Shown here: piece after piece, positions 1-8,638 of the stretch
Layout of the letters: every line of letters begins with the position of its first letter
Numbering within the stretch: the stretch's first letter is position 1
Assembly (NCBI GenBank): GCA_021732785.1
Contig: JAKFUG010000027.1
Span: 1 to 64,000, forward strand
Reading direction: 5' to 3'
DNA length: 64,000 nucleotides
From: Planctomycetaceae bacterium
GTDB taxonomy: Bacteria; Planctomycetota; Planctomycetia; Planctomycetales; Planctomycetaceae
Program-made: the position numbers and the translations under genes
Notes under the pieces: generated by a model
What the model was told of the DNA's origin: nothing
What the model saw: only the letters and a program-made list of their open reading frames with translations
Databases searched by the model: none

Positions 1-752
1 CCCCCACCGCCGCCCTGTGGTATGAAACAGCAATTAGCGTAATAGGTACCGTTTGGCACATCTGTCGCGTGACTACATTGACCGCTACATGTATCATACA
101 GTACAGTATCAGGTCCAGAGACTCCGTATTGTACGTACCCTCCGCACCCGCAGTCGTAGCACGCAATGATCGCGGACCAGTCGGGGGAAATAGCGTCATA
201 TGCCGCCATAGATGCGGCACCCGAAGGCCCGGTGAACGATGGCAACTGATTTAGCAGCAGGTCAGTCGCTTTTGCCGTGCCCGACGGAAACGTACTACCT
301 AAATAAGTCGCACGGATATTGCCCGGTGACAATTCTTCCCATTGGTATCCAGTCGGGCAAAATATAACAGGAGCCGATGCCATAACTGCGGCGTCTGGCA
401 CTACCGACGCCCACAGAGATTCGTGCGTACTAGACCACGTTCCGGTCTTTGACCAGTCACCGTCGCGATAAGTCCACGCCTTCAACTCCTGAATAGGCAT
501 CGCACTGCCACCAAATTGGTGCCACGTTCCGGAATAATAGTAGGATTTCGTCGTGGTAGTGCCATCGACGTTCAATGTAAACTGCCACGCCGTATCCCCC
601 TCGTCGAGATAACCGTAGCCCGTCGAAATATCAACAGAAGTTTCGCCCGTCGCCTTAAGAAGGTTTTCGGTGCCCATCCAAACGGCAGAGGCGACAGCGC
701 ACCACGCCAGGAAGCCCAGACGTTGACGCCACGTCTTCGGTTTATTAGACAT
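1..752 (-). CDS. pIII-like adsorption protein, partial (C-terminus beyond window)
   Basis: Open from an ATG at 752 to the window edge without a stop, giving 250 codons. The N-terminus has basic residues followed by a hydrophobic stretch (residues about 13-26), which suggests a signal peptide or anchor. The body is rich in Thr, Ser, Gly and Tyr with a Cys cluster (CYDCGC) and several later Cys, and the last visible residues are a run of Gly. Secreted, Cys-containing domains joined by Gly-rich linkers, encoded shortly after the major coat gene, are how inovirus host-attachment proteins (pIII) are built. The gene overlaps the preceding 164-aa gene by 8 nt. I do not recognise a specific homologue; the name rests on position and composition. 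Confidence 0.55.
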   Translation of the reverse strand, partial: MSNKPKTWRQRLGFLAWCAVASAVWMGTENLLKATGETSVDISTGYGYLDEGDTAWQFTLNVDGTTTTKSYYYSGTWHQFGGSAMPIQELKAWTYRDGDWSKTGTWSSTHESLWASVVPDAAVMASAPVIFCPTGYQWEELSPGNIRATYLGSTFPSGTAKATDLLLNQLPSFTGPSGAASMAAYDAISPDWSAIIACYDCGCGGYVQYGVSGPDTVLYDTCSGQCSHATDVPNGTYYANCCFIPQGGGG

Positions 753-1239
753 AATCTTTTCCCTGCAACACGATTGACAGCGACTGCAACGCAATCAACA
801 CGCCGAGAAGCACCACAAAGACCAGTGATGCCGTTTTAACGGTGGTATCGAGAGCCTGAATGCCTTCAGACGATGTTTCTTCACCAAAGCCCGGTGGCGT
901 TGTGGACGCAAGCAGATTCCAAACTGAAAGAGCATCAGGCGAGAGCGAGGATTGCGCGCCGGCAGCGTAGGCCAGAATGGCACCCTTCAGCGCGCTTGCG
1001 TCCGTGTACGGGTCGGAACTCCACGCCGTTTCGTAATCTTCGTACGTTAGAACCGAGATCGTTTCCGAACCACCGAAACCGACGTCAAGGACGCGGATTT
1101 GAAACGAGTTTCCGCCGCCCGTCCACGACATGCGAAAGCCCACAACGTCATCAACAATGATTTCCTCGACGGAATACGCATCGGATGAACCGAACGTGGG
1201 CAAGGCCGAAAGAGCCGCCGCAAGAAGGTACGCTGTCAT
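745..1239 (-). CDS. Secreted, membrane-anchored minor coat candidate
   Basis: 164 aa from an ATG preceded by GAGG at 7 nt. The first ~20 residues are hydrophobic (signal peptide likely), and residues about 133-158 form one strong transmembrane helix, followed by a short tail ending KDYV. This is the topology of a periplasmic protein anchored by its C-terminus, as in inovirus minor coat proteins. It carries the motif WTGGGNSFQ near residue 40, which is nearly repeated in the 115-aa gene at 4914-5261. It lies just after the terminator that follows the coat gene, so it is probably expressed at a lower level than the coat protein. It could equally be a pVI-like or an accessory attachment protein. 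Confidence 0.6.
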   Translation of the reverse strand: MTAYLLAAALSALPTFGSSDAYSVEEIIVDDVVGFRMSWTGGGNSFQIRVLDVGFGGSETISVLTYEDYETAWSSDPYTDASALKGAILAYAAGAQSSLSPDALSVWNLLASTTPPGFGEETSSEGIQALDTTVKTASLVFVVLLGVLIALQSLSIVLQGKDYV

Positions 1240-1253
1240 CGGTAAGCCTCAAC

Positions 1254-1288
1254 AAAAAGGGCGAGACGGCCAAAAGACCGCCCCGCCC
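1254..1288 (-). terminator. Rho-independent terminator directly downstream of coat gene
   Basis: Read on the minus strand, an 11-bp stem (5' arm from 1288 to 1278, 3' arm from 1269 to 1259, two G-T pairs) closes an 8-nt loop and is followed by five T (1258-1254). It sits between the coat gene stop (1311) and the next start (1239). Ff phages have their central terminator in the same place, right after gene VIII. Confidence 0.75.
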
Positions 1289-1310
1289 CCCTGCCCCATG
1301 TTTCAGACGA

Positions 1311-1547
1311 CTAAACCGCCTTGCGAGCGTAACGCATTCCGACCTGCACGAGCCGGAAGGCGAGCCAAACAAGAACGATGGTCCCGATCACAGCACCAAT
1401 GGCGGTCGCGGCTTCAGTGACTTTGTCTTCGAGACCGGAATTCGTCAGAATGTCATCAACCGCGAACGTGGCTTGTGCGAAGGCCGTCGAGGCCGACAGA
1501 CACAGAGCGGCACCGAGACCAGCAGCGTAAGCACCAAATCGACGCAT
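1311..1547 (-). CDS. Major coat protein (pVIII-like)
   Basis: 78 aa from an ATG with a good AAGGAAG ribosome site. Residues 1-23 are a classic signal peptide ending AFA, with cleavage predicted before QATFAV. The mature part (~54 aa) has an acidic amphipathic N-terminus (VDDILTNSGLEDKVTEA), one hydrophobic helix (about residues 49-67) and a basic tail (RYARKAV). Length, charge distribution and processing match inovirus pVIII, whose mature form is about 50 aa in M13. An upstream TTG at 1562 would add five residues but is less likely. The following terminator and the small membrane gene before it support the call. Confidence 0.75.
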   Translation of the reverse strand: MRRFGAYAAGLGAALCLSASTAFAQATFAVDDILTNSGLEDKVTEAATAIGAVIGTIVLVWLAFRLVQVGMRYARKAV

Positions 1548-1563
1548 TTTGCTTCCTTGCAAA

Positions 1564-1701
1564 TTACGAACGAGAGAACCACCCCGGTAACTTCGCCACG
1601 AGAGACAACAGCAGCATATAACCCCCCATTACCACCCCCCAGCCGAGGCCGAAGCCCAGGCACTTCGATAATTCTTGGGCGAAGGTGAGATCGTATTCCA
1701 C
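1564..1701 (-). CDS. Small single-helix membrane protein (pVII/pIX-like)
   Basis: 45 aa if it starts at a GTG (1701), which is preceded by AAGGGG at 9 nt. The same frame stays open up to 1833, but that part overlaps the RHH gene and has no good start. The protein has a short polar N-terminus, one hydrophobic helix (about residues 15-36) and the basic tail PGWFSRS. Tiny one-helix proteins encoded just before the major coat gene are the tip proteins pVII and pIX in Ff phages. No sequence similarity can be claimed. Confidence 0.5.
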   Translation of the reverse strand: MEYDLTFAQELSKCLGFGLGWGVVMGGYMLLLSLVAKLPGWFSRS

Positions 1702-1762
1702 TGCTGTCAACCCCTTGGATGGGTTATGTTTTCGGGTATGTGTGATTCCCACTTGTGCGAAT

Positions 1763-1993
1763 TCAAGCCGCTTTACTGTTTTCCTCCGGTTGTACCAAAC
1801 CCGGTAGAGGCGGTTGTACGGATAATAGCGCATCCGCGAATTGGTAGTCTCGCATCTTCCGTACTAACTCACGCATAATCCGTGAGCGTGAGACGTTGAA
1901 CGCCCTTGCCCTTGCGTCCAGCAGTTCACAGTCAACATCAGCAAGACACACCTGAACGACGCGCTTATGCGCAGAACACTTTCGACCGAACAT
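1763..1993 (-). CDS. Ribbon-helix-helix (CopG/Arc-type) regulator
   Basis: 76 aa from an ATG with GGGAG upstream, starting 4 nt after the initiator stop codon. Residues 10-45 read as a short beta strand (RVVQVCLA), a helix (ELLDARARAF), a turn and a second helix (SRSRIMRELVRKM), the pattern of RHH DNA-binding proteins. Such proteins next to rolling-circle initiators usually control copy number or repress the phage. The C-terminus is Pro-rich and probably flexible. Its DNA target may be one of the nearby inverted repeats; that is speculation. Confidence 0.6.
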   Translation of the reverse strand: MFGRKCSAHKRVVQVCLADVDCELLDARARAFNVSRSRIMRELVRKMRDYQFADALLSVQPPLPGLVQPEENSKAA

Positions 1994-1996
1994 CGT

Positions 1997-3670
1997 TCAC
2001 GCTCCCGGTAACGCTGACCAAATCCGCACTTGCTTCAGTTGCGTTTCAGCCAGCACTTCAACAAACAACTGACGCTTTTCCGCTTGCGTCACACTCTCCG
2101 AACCTCGACGGCCACCGCCAAAGCGAGACACCGCGAATAACTCCGTCAACGCATCGTCGAAACCTTCAATCGAGAGTTCGACGCCGGCGACAGCAAGGCC
2201 CTTAGCCAGACAGCCCAAGGCGACCTTAACAAGCCGGGTCGGGTCGCCGACGGTTTTGACGCGGCGATTAAGAGGCGATTGACCCTCCGCCCACGCACCG
2301 AAACCCGCAATGACTTCCAACCAAAGATCATCCATCACCGTACGTTCTGAATGATTCTTGCAGCGTTTCTTGACCACACGGAACCAGTTGATACACGCCC
2401 AATCACAGATCGTTTTCAGACTGCTCAGAACGTCTGTCAGACTGCGGAATTCGAGGGATTGCGACTTACACGGACGAATGCGGAATTCGACCCGCCATGC
2501 TTCGTCCGGGTCTTGACCGTGCCAACGATGTTCCACCATCGCGGGCCAGACTTCCGGCTTCTTCTTCTTCACTTCGCGGACTTTATCGTAGACCGTCAGT
2601 GAGCACGCACCGCCCGACACGCTGAAGCCGGTGAAGACGCCGCCGCCCGTGATATTAGGCTTCACGTCACCGCCTTTCGTCACCCAGGCCATACGGTTGA
2701 TGATTTCCTTCCAACGTTCGCGGTATTCGCCCACCATATCGAGGCAGACATCGAAACGACGGACGCGGATCTTCGTGGCGTCAAGCCCGAGCGCGTCAAG
2801 CACCTGGGCGACGTATTCGAGGCACTCGATTTCGCCTTGGATAAGGCACGCGGAACCAGGTATCTCAATGAACATTTGCGGGAGCTTGGAGACAGTGCCA
2901 TCGTGCTTTCGGCGGTCCGCACCGAAGGCGAACGTGATCCCCTTCGAGACCCACACGACGGGCATATGGTTAAAACCGCCGCCGCGGCCCTGACGACGCA
3001 ACACGCCCACGTACCGACCGACGTACGCGATTTCTTCATTCTCGGTTCCCTGCCGCATTGTGTCGCGTTGCTGAAGCAGGGTTGTGCAGAGCTTGACGCA
3101 CCGTTCTTCGGCTTCACCGTAGATGGTGAGACCGAGCCAATCAAGACCGCCTAAATGCGGGGAGACCACTGGCACACTGTTCGCCACTTTTGCCCCTTGG
3201 AGTGATGAGGGGTCCGTGTTACTGGGGTCGGACCCCCGTGGGTAAACGCTCCCCGAAACGAACGGACAAGGCCGCGCCGACTCGCCGACCGGAAGACCGT
3301 CCACCGTGCGACGGATTACCGAACGCTTCGACGCCGCCGACTCGCTGAATCGACGGATGCGACCACCGACCGCACGCAGACCGTGGATCGCCTGCACGTC
3401 ACGATGTTCCGCTTCCCAACGTTCGGCAGCCGCAATCCCCTTCGAGAACATCGAACGCCGTTCACGCTGTTTACGCTGACGCTCGCGGCTTGGGAACTCT
3501 TCGGCTTCGTGCGACAAGGCGACATCGCCATCACGTTCGACGTAACGACCGTGGGACCATGCTTCGCGGTCGTAGTCTTCGTCGTCTTGCCATTCCGGTG
3601 CCTGCGGAATCCCCATTGACTCGAAGTCTTCGCGGGTTTCGCTGAAATCGTCGCTGAGTTGGTACGCCAT
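1997..3670 (-). CDS. Rolling-circle replication initiator (Rep_trans-like)
   Basis: 557 aa. The first ~170 residues are charged and of low complexity. From about 175 the protein resembles phage/plasmid replication initiation factors: WLGLTIYG (178-184), a strand with RFDVCLDM (305-312), a long segment ending SLTVYDKVRE (357-366, with the conserved YDK triplet) and WRVEFRIR (392-399). These blocks match the order in the Rep_trans family (PF02486), which nicks an origin and starts rolling-circle replication, as pII does in Ff phages. The catalytic tyrosine is not assigned. The gene is preceded by a 297-nt structured gap that is the likely origin. The long N-terminal extension is unusual for the family. 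Confidence 0.75.
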   Translation of the reverse strand: MAYQLSDDFSETREDFESMGIPQAPEWQDDEDYDREAWSHGRYVERDGDVALSHEAEEFPSRERQRKQRERRSMFSKGIAAAERWEAEHRDVQAIHGLRAVGGRIRRFSESAASKRSVIRRTVDGLPVGESARPCPFVSGSVYPRGSDPSNTDPSSLQGAKVANSVPVVSPHLGGLDWLGLTIYGEAEERCVKLCTTLLQQRDTMRQGTENEEIAYVGRYVGVLRRQGRGGGFNHMPVVWVSKGITFAFGADRRKHDGTVSKLPQMFIEIPGSACLIQGEIECLEYVAQVLDALGLDATKIRVRRFDVCLDMVGEYRERWKEIINRMAWVTKGGDVKPNITGGGVFTGFSVSGGACSLTVYDKVREVKKKKPEVWPAMVEHRWHGQDPDEAWRVEFRIRPCKSQSLEFRSLTDVLSSLKTICDWACINWFRVVKKRCKNHSERTVMDDLWLEVIAGFGAWAEGQSPLNRRVKTVGDPTRLVKVALGCLAKGLAVAGVELSIEGFDDALTELFAVSRFGGGRRGSESVTQAEKRQLFVEVLAETQLKQVRIWSALPGA

Positions 3671-3967
3671 CCTTGATCCCCAGTTTAATACTTTGGGCTA
3701 CATCCGTGGCCCATCAACGAACGGGTTCCGCTATCGAGCACTCAACACCGCAGAGGCGATGGGATAAGCGGACGACCGCCAAAACGCAGCCTACCGGCTG
3801 AGTGTTGACCGGTCCGCATCGGCTGAGAGATGGCCATTTCCATTTCGCGTACGGGTCCCACCGAGTAACCCCATACGCGAAACGGAAACGGCCATCTCTC
3901 TAGGTTGCCTCTGGGACCGGTCAACGGGTTCGGACTCAATACGCCCCACCGCTCACAGAAACAACCG
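3671..3967. other. Structured non-coding region, candidate phage origin/packaging signal
   Basis: 297 nt between the initiator and the upstream 88-aa gene, with no credible gene. It contains a 27-bp hairpin (3825-3900) inside a 12-bp perfect inverted repeat (3804-3815 with 3914-3925). Outside that, a degenerate CTGAGT/TTGAGT-type pairing and a small 5-bp hairpin at about 3693-3712 can be seen. In filamentous phages the intergenic region next to the initiator holds the replication origins and packaging hairpin; assigning either role here is inference. Confidence 0.55.
3804..3925 (-). repeat. Nested inverted repeat, 27-bp inner hairpin
   Basis: Inner arms are 3825-3851 and 3874-3900 with a 22-nt loop. 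They differ at two positions. On the plus strand these are A-C mismatches; on the minus (gene-sense) strand they are G-T pairs, so only the minus strand forms a fully paired stem. Outer arms 3804-3815 (GTTGACCGGTCC) and 3914-3925 are perfect. The packaged strand of filamentous phages is the gene-sense strand, which fits a packaging or origin hairpin. Confidence 0.65.
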
Positions 3968-4234
3968 TTACGAACGCCCGCTGTAATCCATCGCGAGCCA
4001 CGCAATTCCGACAACCTTTTCGACCTTCGACAAATCCTCGGTTTCGGCTTGCACGGACGCCGCTTCCGCGATCATTTCGGCGAACTTCAACGCGCTGTCA
4101 TCCGCTTTTTCAATGCCCGCAATGACCGTTGAGACGAGGCAGTGAACCAGCAGCGACGAGTCAACCTTGTAATCGTTGGCGAACCCTCGAATGGTGAACG
4201 CTTCCGCTTCCGTCAACTCAAATTCGACCTTCAT
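3968..4234 (-). CDS. Small acidic phage protein, unknown function
   Basis: 88 aa, starting at an ATG that overlaps the stop of the upstream 48-aa gene as ATGA, so translation is probably coupled. It begins MKVEFELTEAEAF and is mostly helical and acidic, with a hydrophobic helix around residues 27-41 (SLLVHCLVSTVIAG) and an Ala/Glu-rich stretch at 51-70. No family recognised. Encoded immediately upstream of the structured gap and the initiator, it could be a regulator or a chaperone for replication. Confidence 0.55.
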   Translation of the reverse strand: MKVEFELTEAEAFTIRGFANDYKVDSSLLVHCLVSTVIAGIEKADDSALKFAEMIAEAASVQAETEDLSKVEKVVGIAWLAMDYSGRS

Positions 4235-4377
4235 TTTCTTCCCTTCAAAACCCTGAAGACACTCGGAACAGGCACCACAGCAATCGCGACGACGACGCAC
4301 ACCGAAGCGAATCCCGTCATCATCGTGATAATCACACACTGAACGCTCACACCGACATCGATCGCCGTTTCAATCAT
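4231..4377 (-). CDS. 48-aa single-helix membrane protein
   Basis: Begins MIETAIDVG at an ATG that overlaps the stops of both upstream candidate frames (ATGA with the 81-aa gene, 8 nt with the 119-aa gene) and ends in an ATGA overlap with the 88-aa gene. Residues about 10-38 are one long hydrophobic helix, followed by the basic tail RVLKGRK. Size and topology resemble the minor tip proteins of filamentous phages. The double ATGA chain is good evidence that this short frame is translated. Confidence 0.5.
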   Translation of the reverse strand: MIETAIDVGVSVQCVIITMMTGFASVCVVVAIAVVPVPSVFRVLKGRK

Positions 4378-4729
4378 CGTCCCCGAACTCCAACCGGTCT
4401 TGACGGGGTAGCCCGGCCTGACCGCTGTTTGCCTTTCGGGACGAGGATCGCGACCGGACGACGCCCGCACGTTTTTTGACCTGGGGCGGGGGAGTGGCGG
4501 ACGACGAGCTTCGAGAGGTCTTGCGGTCCACACCCGGTTTTCGGGAGCCCAAGATAGACTTTGACGCCGCACCATTTGCAGACGTGGACCGCTTCGGCGA
4601 TACCGCCACGTATTGGCATTCCTTGCCCCCACAAAGACAGTAACCGCGAAGACACGACGAACGACGGCTAATCGCCATCACTTCGGCTTGTTCGCGGTCG
4701 CTCAGTTCGTTCCAGACTGGACCATCCAT
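4370..4729 (-). CDS. Unknown phage protein, 119 aa (frame overlaps the 81-aa gene)
   Basis: Starts at ATG 4729 with AGGGCAGGG upstream. Residues 1-50 look like a real soluble protein (MDGPVWNELSDREQAEVMAI, then a Cys-rich CLRGYCLCGGKEC). The second half is a Ser/Arg-rich low-complexity string and overlaps, in another frame, the better-looking 81-aa gene at 4374-4619. Either both frames are translated, or the first half joins the other frame through a frameshift, or only the front part matters. Function unknown. Confidence 0.4.
   Translation of the reverse strand: MDGPVWNELSDREQAEVMAISRRSSCLRGYCLCGGKECQYVAVSPKRSTSANGAASKSILGSRKPGVDRKTSRSSSSATPPPQVKKRAGVVRSRSSSRKANSGQAGLPRQDRLEFGDDD
4374..4619 (-). 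CDS. Cys-motif phage protein, 81 aa, overlapping frame
   Basis: Starts at ATG 4619 with a GGGGG stretch about 6 nt upstream. It contains CKWC (14-17) followed by a Gly/Pro loop and further Cys at 30 and 51, reminiscent of a small zinc-binding fold, and it has a basic C-terminus. Third codon positions are strongly G/C, better than in the competing frame. It ends in an ATGA overlap with the 48-aa membrane gene, the same junction style used at the next gene. I favour this frame for the second half of 4370-4729. Confidence 0.45.
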   Translation of the reverse strand: MPIRGGIAEAVHVCKWCGVKVYLGLPKTGCGPQDLSKLVVRHSPAPGQKTCGRRPVAILVPKGKQRSGRATPSRPVGVRGR

Positions 4730-4791
4730 AGCCCTGCCCTTAAAGGCCGTCAGGCATCCTTGCCCGCTTGGCGAAATCCATTCGCTCCCCC

Positions 4792-4871
4792 GGCCAGTTC
4801 CGCTCTCATATAGGACAACTCGCCGGGGTCGAGTCTGCGGCAACAAGCCGCATATGAGAGCGGAACTGGCC
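4792..4871 (-). repeat. Cloverleaf-like inverted repeat (20-bp perfect stem with two inner hairpins)
   Basis: Arms 4792-4811 and 4852-4871 are perfect complements (20 bp). The 40-nt interior holds two more hairpins: ACTCG 4818-4822 with CGAGT 4830-4834, and GCGGC 4837-4841 with GCCGC 4847-4851. It lies in the 184-nt non-coding gap (4730-4913) between the 115-aa and 119-aa genes. It could be a single-strand origin, packaging signal or processing site; no T-tract follows it, so a terminator is unlikely. Confidence 0.65.
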
Positions 4872-4913
4872 CCCTGCCCCGAAGGGAGCAGAGCAGGGAG
4901 ACCGAGCCGCGGG

Positions 4914-5261
4914 TCAGGCAGCCCGCGAAACCGGTGCCGCCGTCTGCGCCTGCCGACGCCAAACGAGGGAACCCGATGGGCCGATACTGATGTTCTTGAA
5001 GGACTCTTTGGACTGCCCTTCATACGTGCGAATCTGGCGTTCGCATTGCATATCGAGTTTCTGGCCCTCGACGAGGAACGGGCCGTAGGCTGAATACTCT
5101 TCCTTCGTCAACTGGAAGGAAACGCCGCCGCCCGTCCAACCCACGCGGACGCGGTACGATTCCTTGTATTGATCCTTGGCGGGACTGTGATAACACTCCA
5201 GCACCGTCACATCCCCGTACACGAGATTTTCGCCGATGATTCGGCCTTGCTCAGTGAGCAT
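4914..5261 (-). CDS. Candidate phage ssDNA-binding protein (pV-like), 115 aa
   Basis: Starts at ATG 5261, overlapping the end of the 111-aa gene by 11 nt. The sequence alternates short beta-strand-like stretches (NLVYGDVTVLECY, YRVRVGWTGGGVSFQL) with charged loops and ends with an Ala-rich tail. In filamentous phages a small beta-barrel ssDNA-binding protein is encoded near the initiator; size and strand content here would fit, but no signature residues can be claimed. The WTGGGVSFQ motif is almost identical to one in the 164-aa envelope protein, which is hard to explain if the two have unrelated folds. Confidence 0.35.
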   Translation of the reverse strand: MLTEQGRIIGENLVYGDVTVLECYHSPAKDQYKESYRVRVGWTGGGVSFQLTKEEYSAYGPFLVEGQKLDMQCERQIRTYEGQSKESFKNISIGPSGSLVWRRQAQTAAPVSRAA

Positions 5262-5586
5262 CCTTGCTTACCTTTGCATCTGCCCCCGGTGTTGAAAGCG
5301 GATCGGGTTGGGGCTGTAACGCCGCCGCTTTGAGAAGTGCCGCTTTCGCTGCACATGGTTTGCAACCCGTCTTCTTGACAGGTTGCGATTGCGGCAAGAC
5401 AGCCGCAGACATCACCACCGGACGAGCAAAGAACCCGCCCGCGATGTAGCACGAGAGACCAAGAGCCACCGCCCACGCCCCCGCAGGACTGCGGTACAGA
5501 CGCGAACAGACTCCGGCGATTTTGGCCGCTTTCCGATTGACGAAAAGACGGACCGCAGGCACAATGGCCTTTAGCCGTGGAATCAT
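5251..5586 (-). CDS. Membrane-anchored small phage protein, 111 aa
   Basis: First gene of the leftward block, from an ATG with AAGG upstream. The N-terminus is strongly basic (about residues 1-30), followed by one hydrophobic helix (about 36-55, AWAVALGLSCYIAGGFF), then an Ala/Pro/Lys-rich region with CKPC. This suggests an inner-membrane protein with the basic part in the cytoplasm. No family recognised. It overlaps the next gene by 11 nt, so the two are co-translated. Confidence 0.5.
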   Translation of the reverse strand: MIPRLKAIVPAVRLFVNRKAAKIAGVCSRLYRSPAGAWAVALGLSCYIAGGFFARPVVMSAAVLPQSQPVKKTGCKPCAAKAALLKAAALQPQPDPLSTPGADAKVSKDAH

Positions 5587-5772
5587 TTCTTTGCCTTGCT
5601 ACGTCGATTCTGCGGTTAGTGACCTGAAGGAATTTGCAGTTCCAACAGTTCACCGCCATTACGGTGTCAACTCGACCGTTTGCAGCGGTTGAGCCAACAA
5701 AAGCGAGCGGGATCGCACCCCGTTCGCCGGACTTGTCCACCATAACCAGACATCTGGCTGAGTTGCACAAGC

Positions 5773-5820
5773 GTCAAGTTTATCACTTGACTCTGAACAA
5801 CATAGCATGTCCGTTATGTT
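5773..5820. promoter_or_regulatory. Two small inverted repeats at prophage edge: operator or attachment site candidate
   Basis: GTCAAG 5773-5778 pairs with CTTGAC 5786-5791, and AACATA 5799-5804 pairs with TATGTT 5815-5820. They lie upstream of the first phage gene and next to the host junction in an AT-richer stretch. The second repeat recalls the TTATGTT half of Xer/dif sites but the spacing between arms is wrong for a canonical dif. An operator is equally possible. The rest of 5587-5927 shows nothing further. Confidence 0.3.
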
Positions 5821-5927
5821 TCCTTTGTTTCAGGCTTTTCCGCGGAAAATACGCATTCCCGAGCGGATGCGGCGAAATGAAGACGATGCCGCACCTGCCC
5901 GGAACTCCTCCCCTGACGCAGACGCGA

Positions 5928-6461
5928 TCAGACGATTTCCGGCCGCGATGGGCGCGTCATGTTGACGATCGCGAGGCAGCCGATCATCGTCGCGAGCAGA
6001 CCGCCAGCGTAACTCGCGTCGTGCATGATACCGGCGCGGAGAAACGCCGCGCGATGTTGAACACCGTGCGGAATCCAGACGTCGCGCAGGGATTGATCGT
6101 CGACGAAAATTGCGGCCACTGCCAGCGCTCCCAAACCGCAGATGACATCCACGACAACCGCGACGAGAAACGCGACGCCCATAATTCTCGGCAACGATTT
6201 CGCGTGACATCGCCACAGCGCGACAATCGCCATCGGCGGCCCAAACAACAGGCCCGTCCACCAGGCGGCACGCCACCCGACCACCGCCGCACCCCAACGA
6301 TTCTGCCACGCATCATGCACGCGAAACTGAATGAACTTGAACCGATGAAAGTATTCCGGCGAGACCGTGTACGACACCTGATTGTGCAGCGCTCCATACG
6401 CCCCGGCGATCAAGCACGCGGCCGCCGTCCACAACAGCAAATTGATCCAACGCTTAACCAA
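5928..6461 (-). CDS. Conserved membrane protein, 177 aa, unknown function
   Basis: The only available start is a TTG at 6461 with an AGGGGGG purine run just upstream. The protein has four hydrophobic segments (about residues 8-26, 64-84, 94-117 and 149-168). The segment LHNQVSYTVSPEYFHRFKF is a signature I associate with a conserved uncharacterised bacterial membrane family. It may form an operon with dtd (6934 to 6485), which ends 24 nt before this start. It is the first chromosomal gene next to the prophage, and its 3' end seems intact, so integration did not truncate it. No function can be given. Confidence 0.6.
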   Translation of the reverse strand: MVKRWINLLLWTAAACLIAGAYGALHNQVSYTVSPEYFHRFKFIQFRVHDAWQNRWGAAVVGWRAAWWTGLLFGPPMAIVALWRCHAKSLPRIMGVAFLVAVVVDVICGLGALAVAAIFVDDQSLRDVWIPHGVQHRAAFLRAGIMHDASYAGGLLATMIGCLAIVNMTRPSRPEIV

Positions 6462-6484
6462 TGAGCCCCCCTTCTCGAACCCCT

Positions 6485-6934
6485 TCAGAACGCCTTGCGG
6501 CTATCCAGCAGCAGCGTCACCGGACCATCGTTGACGAGCTCCACATTCATGTGCGTTTGAAAGCGGCCCGTGGCAACCGCAATCCCGCGGCCTTGGACCT
6601 CGGCGACCAGCGTTCGATACAACGCTTCGGCGATTTCCGGACGCGCGGCGGCGATGAAACTGGGACGCCGGCCTTTGCGACAATCGCCCAGCAGCGTGAA
6701 CTGACTGACCACCAGCATCGCCCCGCCGATCTCCGAAAGTGCGAGATTCATTTTCCCTTCGGCATCTTCAAAGATCCGCAGGCCGACTAATTTTTCCGCG
6801 AGCGTGACCGCATCCTCGGCCGTATCACCTTCCGCGACGCCGAGCAGAACCAGCAACCCGGTGGCGATCTCGCCGGTGATTTCGCCGTCGACGGTGACTT
6901 TGGCGCGAGAGACGCGTTGAACAACAGCACGCAT
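6485..6934 (-). CDS. dtd: D-aminoacyl-tRNA deacylase
   Basis: 149 aa, full length for the family. The start is the ATG giving [13 protein letters not shown], the canonical N-terminus; frame upstream of it is unlikely coding. It contains SQFTL (77-81) and NDGPVT (135-140), which carries the cross-subunit Gly-cisPro motif that selects D-amino acids. The enzyme hydrolyses D-Tyr and other D-aminoacyl-tRNAs as a homodimer in the cytoplasm, keeping D-residues and glycine mischarging out of translation. A long inverted repeat lies just upstream of the start. Confidence 0.95.
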
Positions 6935-6957
6935 GGAAATGTAAACCTTAATTTCTC

Positions 6958-7033
6958 TGAGCGGCACGACGCTAGCCGCCGGTTTTGCTTTGCTCTCTGT
7001 TTGAAGAACCGGCGGCTAGCGCCGTGCCGCTCA
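6958..7033. repeat. 27-bp inverted repeat, REP-like or bidirectional terminator
   Basis: Arms 6958-6984 and 7007-7033 match at 26 of 27 positions (core GGCGGCTAGC), with a 22-nt loop. It lies between the stop of the chimeric gene (7039) and the dtd start (6934). A partial copy of the core (GGCGGCTAGC) occurs at 48188-48197. I recall similar GGCGGCTA-type repeats scattered in planctomycete genomes. Confidence 0.6.
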
Positions 7034-7038
7034 AGAAT

Positions 7039-7467
7039 TCAGCATCGGCCACGGCGGCGTTCTTTCGACGGTAGAATTTCCAGGCACGTCGTCCACCTGC
7101 CGGTGAGAATGGTTTGCACGAATTCCTCCGTCAGCTTCTCGGCCCACATTTCGTGCGTGAGCCGTTCGTGATCGTATTCCACGGGCACGAATTCGACATC
7201 GATCCCCGACTCGGAATCGTTCGTCGAAAGGAGCGTGTACCACACCCGCGGCGTGCCATCGTTTTCGGGTCGGCCGAGCACGCCGATTTTGATCATTCGC
7301 CGCCCGGATTCGAATCGCCGTTCCCAATGCAGGCCCGTATGCGTGCCGCAGATCACATCGGCATGAAATTCATCAAAACCGCAACGATGAGCGAGCACCG
7401 CAGCTTCGAGTCCGATCGGGCCGGCTCCCAGAATTGCGATCCGTGGCGTCCGTGCAGCGTCTGCCAT
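7039..7467 (-). pseudogene. Chimeric remnant: oxidoreductase N-terminus joined to metallophosphoesterase C-terminus
   Basis: 142 aa in one open frame. Residues 8-24 (PRIAILGAGPIGLEAAV) are the start of an FAD/NAD(P)-binding Rossmann fold. From about residue 30 the protein abruptly becomes the tail of a metallophosphoesterase: VICGTHTGLHW with a His-containing G-T-H-T motif, and a C-terminus (LTGRWTTCLEILPSKERRRGR) I associate with planctomycete calcineurin-like phosphoesterases. Neither domain is complete: the FAD protein lacks everything after its dinucleotide loop and the esterase lacks most metal ligands. A deletion fusing two adjacent genes explains it best. The ATG is good and the frame intact, so a short product may be made. 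It lies 6 nt after thiO. Confidence 0.55.
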
Positions 7468-7473
7468 CGTGGT

Positions 7474-8553
7474 TCATCTCGCCAGCGGCAACGAGACCGG
7501 TTGACCGAGCAGCATCTCCCGCATCAGCGTGGCGGTGATCGGCGAGAGTTGTAAGCCCGCGCGGAAATGCCCGGCGGCGACGAAGACGTTGTCATAGATG
7601 CCGCTGGGGCCGATGAACGGTAATCCGCCGGGACGATGCGGTCGCAAGCCGGACCAGGAACGTTCTAGCTTTGCTTGTGACAGACTGGGCACCAATTGTT
7701 GCGCCAGCTTCAAGAGTCCAGCGACTCCGTCAACCGTATTTCGCTTGTCGAAGCCGACTCGCTCTTCGGTCGAACCGACCAGGATGCGGCCATCCGGTCG
7801 CGGGACCATGTAGCGCAGACCGTCTTCAATCACACAGGAAAACGGCAACGGCTGGGCGTCGAGGAGGACCATCTGCCCGCGGACGGGTTCGATGTCCAGA
7901 TTCATTCCCACTTGTCGAGCAAGTTCGCCCGACCAGGCACCACTGGCGATGACAAACTGCCCGGCCGTGAATTCACCCGCGGGCGTCCGGACCGAATGGA
8001 CGCGCTGGCCGTTGTGTTCGATCGACATCACGGGATGGCCGGAAAACAGCTCGACCCCGCGCTGGACACAGGCGGCTTGCAGCGCTTTGATCAACCGCGG
8101 ATTGCGGACCTGGCCCAACTCGGGAAGAAAGCACGCCTCTTGAATGGATGGGTTTAACGCGGGAAAACGTTCGCGCAACGAGATGCCCGACAGCGATTCA
8201 AGAGCAATCCCTTCGGCAATCCAGCGGGCTTTCTCTTGTGAGAATTCGCTTTCAGCGGAAGAAGAATGCACCGTCAGACCGCCGCAGCGGACATATCCCG
8301 AATCGATGCCGGTCAGCTCACGCAACCGGCTCGCCCAAGTCGGCCAAAGGACGTGACTGGCCGCCCGTAAGCGGGCTTCCGGAGTCGCGGCCCACGCCGG
8401 ATTCCCCGGCGGCAACATCCCTGCCCCCGCCCATGAGGCCTCCTGACCAAACTGACCCTGTTCCAGAATGCGAACCGAGACGTTGTGGAGCGACAGTTCG
8501 AAAGCGATTGATAAGCCGATCACTCCGCCACCAATCACCACCACATCGCACAT
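7474..8553 (-). CDS. thiO: Glycine oxidase ThiO (FAD-dependent)
   Basis: 359 aa from the ATG giving MCDVVVIGGGVIGL; an upstream extension is not needed. Residues 4-32 are the FAD-binding GxGxxG fold ending at the acidic residue of RILEQG. EASWAGAGMLPPG (about 38-50) is the typical ThiO/DAO-family block, and the C-terminus has RPHRPGGLPFIGPS and FVAAGHFRAGLQLSP. The family oxidises glycine to the imine used for the thiazole of thiamine. No other thi genes are nearby; it is followed directly by the chimeric remnant. Confidence 0.85.
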   Translation of the reverse strand: MCDVVVIGGGVIGLSIAFELSLHNVSVRILEQGQFGQEASWAGAGMLPPGNPAWAATPEARLRAASHVLWPTWASRLRELTGIDSGYVRCGGLTVHSSSAESEFSQEKARWIAEGIALESLSGISLRERFPALNPSIQEACFLPELGQVRNPRLIKALQAACVQRGVELFSGHPVMSIEHNGQRVHSVRTPAGEFTAGQFVIASGAWSGELARQVGMNLDIEPVRGQMVLLDAQPLPFSCVIEDGLRYMVPRPDGRILVGSTEERVGFDKRNTVDGVAGLLKLAQQLVPSLSQAKLERSWSGLRPHRPGGLPFIGPSGIYDNVFVAAGHFRAGLQLSPITATLMREMLLGQPVSLPLAR

Positions 8554-8638
8554 TATCGTTCTGCCAATCGAGACGAAGCCGTTCACTCCGCGCAGTATAT
8601 CCGTGATCGCTTTGATCGTCGCGGCTCATGGAAAATGA

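What the first reader, a model, noticed from the sequence alone, without database searches (positions are those of the whole stretch)
1..5830. Inovirus-like prophage in a planctomycete chromosome
A leftward block of small genes has the build of a filamentous phage: Rep_trans-like initiator, tiny one-helix protein, signal-peptide coat-like protein, terminator, anchored minor coat, Gly-rich pIII-like protein. Filamentous phages of Planctomycetes are poorly known, and every gene except the initiator lacks a recognisable homologue. The coat and structural proteins may therefore form a new family.
Basis: partly seen in the sequence, partly recalled or inferred. Interest (0 to 1): 0.85.

Follow-up and report, generated by a model that had tools for sequence, protein, structure and literature searches.

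The report
Filamentous-phage prophage in a planctomycete
The first 5.8 kb of this window is the right-hand part of a filamentous (M13-like) phage sitting in a planctomycete chromosome; relatives with fuller gene sets sit at the same dif-like recombination site in other planctomycetes, so this is a little-described phage lineage that also points to a chromosome site an earlier survey could not predict.

Summary
Position 1 is the end of contig C6, so "left of position 1" cannot be read; no Zot over cut-off and no accA were found in this assembly. A same-genus genome supplies the missing half: at the same locus it has a 9.53-kb inovirus between two dif-like repeats, with Rep, coat, pIII-like, pVI-like, Zot (PF05707, 2.4e-11) and secretin (PF00263, 1.6e-13). 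A coat model built without the window finds window 1311-1562 at E 9.3e-15 (next of 617 ORFs 0.84); a Rep model finds 1997-3670 at 4.3e-47. The element's right end is a dif-like site at 5797-5824. That site's core occurs in 141 of 170 family genomes and lies between accA and DTD in 61 of 62 loci where both were found. Of nine Zot genes in the family, eight lie within 9 kb of such a site. A new member of a known kind. Not shown: particles, intactness here, and a role in dimer resolution; skew and dnaA tests mostly did not support a terminus position.

The parts
3..752 (-). pIII-like adsorption protein, N-terminal 250 aa; Cys-rich end then Gly run; cut by the contig end
   Evidence: local alignment with the first 200 aa of G001's pIII-like protein scores 65; shuffles 38.3 +/- 6.8, 2 of 1000 as high. 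A single-sequence search against the relatives did not list it; position 1 is the contig end.
745..1239 (-). 164-aa protein with a C-terminal TM segment; minor-coat-like by position only
   Evidence: no relative found.
1236..1312 (-). stretch holding a terminator-like hairpin with T-run after the coat gene
   Evidence: RNA fold -35.5 kcal/mol; not listed by the consensus scan.
1311..1562 (-). major coat protein (pVIII-like): signal-peptide-like start, acidic stretch, one TM segment, basic end
   Evidence: model of 13 rows (one row, L094, doubtful), window left out, E 9.3e-15; next of 617 ORFs 0.84. alignment.
1564..1833 (-). 89-aa one-helix protein, pVII/pIX-like by position only
   Evidence: no homologue.
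1763..1993 (-). possible ribbon-helix-helix regulator
   Evidence: PF01402 RHH_1 E 0.002, below its cut-off.
1997..3670 (-). rolling-circle replication initiator (Rep_trans / Phage_CRI type)
   Evidence: 40% identity to G001 Rep, E 6e-69; E 4.3e-47; for the family.
3804..3925 (.). long imperfect hairpin upstream of rep; candidate origin or packaging signal (inferred)
   Evidence: z -10.4. No hairpin of this size in G001, L120, L092 or L038.
4792..4871 (.). perfect 20-bp inverted repeat, function unknown
4914..5261 (-). 115-aa protein in the place of an ssDNA-binding protein; identity not confirmed
   Evidence: no hit with the ssb-position model; best E 1.2; model pLDDT 42.
5251..5586 (-). 111-aa protein in the place of G001's 133-aa TM protein; homology not shown
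5797..5824 (+). right attachment site, dif-like: changed left arm, centre TGTCCG, right arm TTATGTTTCCT as on the host side in G001
5928..8586 (-). host flank: TM gene, D-aminoacyl-tRNA deacylase (DTD), FAD oxidoreductase (label by similarity recalled); same order in G001
   Evidence: (DTD 2.4e-55).

Best explanation
Window 1-5824 is the right part of an integrated filamentous phage (inovirus). Shown: the coat and Rep are homologous to those of planctomycete phages that also have Zot and secretin; the gene order (Rep, small one-helix protein, coat, terminator-like hairpin, pIII-like) is that of such phages; the right end is a dif-like site; the same locus in a same-genus genome holds a phage with the whole set. 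Inferred: Rep nicks an origin in the upstream hairpin region and drives rolling-circle replication; the ssDNA is coated by the small coat protein during export through a Zot/pI ATPase and a secretin encoded beyond the contig end; integration and release use the host's Xer recombinases at the dif-like site, since no integrase was found in the window part or in the four relatives bounded by two sites.
For: Relative at the same locus with Zot and secretin between direct repeats 9,532 bp apart. Coat model E 9.3e-15 and Rep model E 4.3e-47; next ORFs of 617 score 0.84 and 0.043. Three more phages between paired sites, 8,711, 14,170 and 13,600 bp, each with coat-, pVI-, Zot- and secretin-model hits. 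dif-like core in 141 of 170 family genomes; accA and DTD on opposite sides of it in 61 of 62 loci. No ORF of 60 aa or more in the window part or those four phages matches either of two query integrases below E 0.05. pIII-like alignment with G001. Gene order as in the fs2 and M13 records.
Against: No Zot or phage secretin can be assigned in this genome: PF05707 best hits are under the cut-off, the Zot alignment gives none, and nine secretin-family matches elsewhere were not examined for phage context. The 115-, 111-, 164- and 89-aa proteins have no confirmed relatives. The long hairpin has no equal in the four relatives scanned. A deletion of the left half in this strain cannot be excluded; the absence of accA, an expected core gene, favours a gap.
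Confidence: 0.92

Rival explanations
1. A defective inovirus remnant: the left half (pIII end, pVI, Zot, secretin) is deleted in this strain, so it would need a helper to make particles.
For: No Zot in the 96 contigs.
Against: accA, which lies directly beyond the element in G001, is also missing, so an assembly or binning gap is more likely. The Rep and coat ORFs are open.
Confidence: 0.12
2. A Rep-plus-integrase mobile element (plasmid- or IME-like), as carried by other planctomycetes with the same Rep family.
For: Rep relatives in L028, L029 and L033 are followed by recombinases and no Zot was seen near them.
Against: The window has a coat homologue after Rep, no integrase match, and its closest Rep is in a Zot-bearing phage.
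Confidence: 0.03
3. About the site rather than the phage: the attachment site is dif in the strict sense, the chromosome dimer resolution site, used through XerCD as by other filamentous phages.
For: Core like E. coli dif (recalled); found in 141 of 170 genomes, once in all but 11 by my count of the table, with 3 control hits seen; occupied by phages in which no integrase was found; the accA-side copy keeps the usual left arm in the four paired cases, with one base different in G004.
Against: Skew of the two 20-kb sides differs in sign in 2 of 7 genomes, and in opposite senses; coarse skew of G114 and G043 turns elsewhere; the site is 40-50% of the genome away from dnaA in 2 of 19 closed genomes, G003 and G034.
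Confidence: 0.7

Closest known systems
Inoviridae / Tubulavirales phages such as M13 and Vibrio phage fs2
   Same: Coat, pIII, pVI, pI, pIV follow each other as in the fs2 and M13 records; the family phages seen here follow Rep-coat-pIII-pVI-Zot-secretin.
   Different: No tblastn match of G001 Zot, L120 Zot or window Rep to 50,697 phage records; G001's secretin reaches fs2 and VFJ pIV and one other Vibrio phage at E 6e-3 to 7e-3. In the four f40-family loci Rep lies after the secretin. Some tip-like proteins carry TSP3-like or collagen repeats.
dif/XerCD-integrating filamentous phages (as described in PMC3025954; passages read)
   Same: Element bounded by dif-like repeats with one copy kept close to the usual sequence; no integrase found in four cases.
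   Different: Host phylum. That paper says the XerD arm is degenerate in phage sites; here the arm that varies is the one matching the XerC side of E. coli dif (arm naming recalled).
Legionella mobile element-1, which revealed dif in Legionellales (PMC9765430; abstract and section list read)
   Same: A mobile element's attachment site points to an unrecognised dif.
   Different: There recombination was tested at the bench; here nothing was, and the position tests were mostly unsupportive.
Inovirus catalogue of Roux et al. 2019 (PMC6813254; abstract and passages read)
   Same: Reports inoviruses in 22 additional phyla.
   Different: Its held main text does not contain 'Planctomyc'; its figures and supplementary tables were not seen, so this lineage may be in it.

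Membership tests
Inovirus (Tubulavirales) | pI/Zot-type ATPase | tested here: inconclusive
   Off the contig; none in G000. Present in the same-locus relative, PF05707 2.4e-11.
Inovirus (Tubulavirales) | Small single-TM major coat protein | tested here: met
   E 9.3e-15.
Inovirus (Tubulavirales) | Rolling-circle initiator | tested here: met
   the window protein alone is below Pfam cut-offs. Catalysis untested.
Inovirus (Tubulavirales) | Outer-membrane secretin (in members that bring their own) | tested here: inconclusive
   Off the contig; G001 secretin PF00263 1.6e-13 and phrog_1012 1.7e-16.
Inovirus (Tubulavirales) | Collinear gene order Rep - small - coat - III - VI - I - IV | tested here: met
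   First part in the window; Rep to secretin in G001, G024, G049, G112, G114, L120 (with 15, 25, 35, 44).
Inovirus (Tubulavirales) | Genome about 5-15 kb | tested here: inconclusive
   Window element incomplete; four relatives bounded by two sites are 8.7-14.2 kb; G049's two site-to-site spans are 23.1 and 23.7 kb.
Inovirus (Tubulavirales) | Filamentous virion, circular ssDNA, release without lysis | not testable with these tools
   Needs culture or particles.
dif-integrating element (IMEX type) | Ends at dif-like repeats at one chromosomal place | tested here: met
   One end in the window; both ends in G001, G112, G114, G004.
dif-integrating element (IMEX type) | No own integrase | tested here: inconclusive
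   None found by similarity to two integrases; left half of the window element unseen. G024's phage, not next to a site, has a weak Phage_integrase match.
Chromosomal dif site | Unique in the chromosome | tested here: met
   one match in 130 of the 141 genomes with any (my count of its table).
Chromosomal dif site | Lies at the replication terminus | tested here: inconclusive
   Skew sign differs across the site in 2 of 7; no turn there in G114 or G043; near-opposite dnaA in 2 of 19. The origin may not be near dnaA.

The most novel reading that the evidence does not exclude
A lineage of filamentous phages of Planctomycetota, perhaps of family rank, has used one conserved dif-like locus beside accA as its integration site in at least two families of the class, in both orientations. 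It swaps replication initiators and tip-protein stalks (TSP3-like or collagen-like), can carry defence genes, and reveals the chromosome dimer resolution site of a phylum in which it had not been predicted.
Probability: 0.5. Interest if true: 0.68.

Novelty: new member of a known kind. Interest (0 to 1): 0.55.

Why it matters
Filamentous phages of planctomycetes are hardly described in what I could search. Searches (9 papers; 11; 1; 2) for inovirus, filamentous phage, Zot or Tubulavirales together with planctomycetes listed no paper on such a phage; I read passages of three of these papers and only the listing of the rest. The one chronic planctomycete phage described there is hexagonal with a 21.9-kb genome (PMC10945688, passages). 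The site these phages use is a directly testable candidate for planctomycete dif, which a 2011 survey could not predict (0 of 1, PMC3025954, passages). Such phages might also become genetic tools for these bacteria.

Tried and rejected
Structure prediction failed: Rep with two rows, pLDDT 31; the 115-aa protein alone, pLDDT 42; no fold search was run on them. The ssb-position model did not find the window's 115-aa protein, so the ssDNA-binding label is not claimed. NCBIfam gave nothing convincing for the phage ORFs given and Rfam nothing. IMG/VR scans with window Rep and with G001 Zot found no relative; the Zot alignment found one, L120. A terminus position for the dif-like site was tested and mostly not supported. 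Of the 19 Rep-relative loci fetched I looked at gene maps of eight. Five weak Zot-alignment hits in the phylum sample (G507, G552, G073, G280, G522; E 4e-7 to 9e-6) were not examined. L120 shows no exact terminal repeat, so its completeness is unproved.
Full report
Setting. The window is bases 1-64000 of contig C6 of genome G000 (96 contigs, 6.69 Mb), so position 1 is a contig end. The host flank to the right holds a 177-aa TM gene, a D-aminoacyl-tRNA deacylase (DTD, TIGR00256 2.4e-55) and an FAD-oxidoreductase-like gene.

The block itself. From right to left on the minus strand: a dif-like site (5797-5824), two small ORFs (5251-5586, 4914-5261), short doubtful ORFs with a perfect inverted repeat (4792-4871), a long hairpin (3804-3925; DNA fold z -10.4), Rep (1997-3670), a possible RHH protein, an 89-aa one-helix protein, an 83-aa coat-like protein, a terminator-like hairpin (-35.5 kcal/mol), a 164-aa anchored protein, and a Cys/Gly-rich protein cut by the contig end. 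Pfam, PHROGs and NCBIfam give only weak hits for these.

The same locus in a sister species. In 99 genomes, 12, G000 among them, have a match to the window Rep at E <= 0.001. The best other match, 40% identical, is in same-genus genome G001, next to the same flank genes. There the element holds, besides other ORFs, a 133-aa TM protein, a 134-aa protein, Rep, a 53-aa coat, a 564-aa pIII-like protein with acidic repeats (seen by eye), a 121-aa TM protein, a Zot ATPase (PF05707 2.4e-11; phrog_197 2.9e-19) and a secretin (PF00263 1.6e-13; phrog_1012, protein IV of M13, 1.7e-16). It lies between direct repeats 9,532 bp apart, with accA just beyond. G000 has no match to that Zot at E <= 10 and none to accA, two under-cut-off matches to PF05707 and none to the Zot alignment. 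Missing accA suggests that the assembly or bin lacks this stretch. Nine secretin-family matches elsewhere in G000 were not followed up.

Homology tests. Models were built from relatives with the window left out and run on all 617 window ORFs of 40 aa or more. Coat (13 rows, one of them, L094, doubtful): window 1311-1562 at 9.3e-15, next 0.84. Rep (9 rows, two of a different Rep family): 1997-3670 at 4.3e-47, next 0.043. The ssb-position, pVI, Zot and secretin models give nothing in the window (best E 1.3, 0.59, 0.17 and 0.032); for the last three this is expected because the genes would lie off the contig. Single-sequence searches of the other small window proteins against the relatives gave nothing firm. 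The end of the pIII-like fragment aligns with G001's pIII-like protein better than all but 2 of 1000 shuffles.

The site. The core ATAATGTCNGTTATGTT with up to one mismatch occurs in 141 of 170 family genomes, once in all but 11 of them by my count; the reversed control hit three genomes in the listing. The window copy differs from the core at two positions, which is why G000 scores zero. In 156 loci or joined stretches with a site, accA was found in 128, DTD in 77 and both in 62; in 61 of these 62 the site lies between them (some genomes are counted twice, as an unnamed and as a named record, and many loci are too short to reach both genes). Paired sites in G112, G114 and G004 led directly to three further phages, 8,711, 14,170 and 13,600 bp, with coat-, pVI-, Zot- and secretin-model hits in each; G004 gives no hit with the Rep model, its candidate initiator matches PF23343 at 0.0012, under the cut-off, and its coat is a doubtful member of the model. 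In these three and G001 the accA-side copy keeps the usual left arm (one base different in G004) and the far copy has a changed left arm. Genes point towards accA in G001, G112, G114, G004 and G188, as they would in the window, and away from it in G096; in G146 they point towards DTD with accA off the contig. So both orientations occur.

Spread. PF05707 found 5 Zot genes in 4 of 170 family genomes. The alignment A1, made after adding three phages found through paired sites, found 9 in 8 of 170. Eight of the nine lie within 9 kb of a dif-like site; the ninth, in G024, is on a 13.7-kb contig with a weak Phage_integrase match. Zot and secretin Pfam matches over the cut-offs were checked for L120, L093, L054 and L251; L038 has the secretin but its Zot is just under the cut-off (0.0011). 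In a phylum sample A1 matched 14 of 392 genomes, three of them in the family. Of the eleven others I examined six (G096, G526, G433, G327, G355, G521): G096 and G327 have the site at one end; G526, G433, G355 and G521 show none within three mismatches, and G521 is a fragment. One IMG/VR contig, L120 (8,159 bp), has hits from Rep to secretin. Thirteen Zots from these phages, L120 included, fall on one side of a tree from six reference pI proteins (82/88, not a strong value, with long branches).

What it works like and what it is. The order coat, pIII, pVI, pI, pIV matches the records of fs2 and M13. Rolling-circle replication, extrusion by Zot and secretin, and Xer-mediated integration are inferred from these families. 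The strict meaning of dif is not shown: the skew of the two 20-kb sides differs in sign in 2 of 7 genomes and in opposite senses; coarse profiles of G114 and G043 turn elsewhere; and the site is 40-50% of the genome away from dnaA in 2 of 19 closed genomes, G003 and G034 (one genome length rounded).

Literature. Seen: Roux 2019 (PMC6813254; abstract and passages), Kono 2011 (PMC3025954; passages), Zheng 2024 (PMC10945688; passages), the Lentisphaerae phage paper (PMC11361711; passages), PMC8041624 (passages), PMC9765430 (abstract and section list). Searches listed no paper on planctomycete filamentous phages or planctomycete dif that I recognised as such; most listed papers were seen as listing only, only open-licence papers are held, and Roux's supplements were not available.

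Verdict. A real inovirus prophage, right part only; a new member of a known kind from a lineage that appears distinct, with a useful by-product in the candidate planctomycete dif site.

Noticed in passing
L094:7911-9430: The G004 dif-site phage carries two genes that match a candidate anti-phage defence pair (PADLOC PDC-M38A 7.2e-68 and PDC-M38B 1.1e-11).
   Followed up: partly
L093:8508-13447: The G114 phage carries three opposite-strand genes (first with HD-CE, 2.6e-35; weaker match to RT_UG24, 1.1e-6); possible cargo of unknown role.
   Followed up: partly
L028, L029, L033: Relatives of the window Rep are followed by tyrosine or serine recombinases and no Zot was seen, suggesting Rep-plus-integrase elements in planctomycetes (L028 integrase PF00589 2.7e-20; L029 and L033 judged by eye).
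   Followed up: partly
G049:C1:7152218-7199057 (L055-L057): Three dif-like sites bound two neighbouring phages with nearly the same Rep, pIII-like and Zot proteins, but each span is about 23 kb and holds much DNA beyond the phage genes; unexplained.
   Followed up: partly
pIII-like proteins of L026, L032, L035, L054, L120: Tip-like proteins contain TSP3-type acidic repeats (L035, L054; below cut-off) or collagen repeats (L120, 9.3e-15); in L026 and L032 the acidic repeats were seen by eye.
   Followed up: partly
L092, L093 versus window/L026 Rep: Phages of similar layout use different initiator families (REP_ORF2-G2P 3e-7 in L092; Rep_trans/Phage_CRI type elsewhere), a sign of module exchange.
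   Followed up: partly
G112, G114, G118 and others, record start: Eleven of 19 closed genomes have a second, shorter DnaA-like protein (340-355 aa frames) at the record start besides the long one elsewhere.
   Followed up: no
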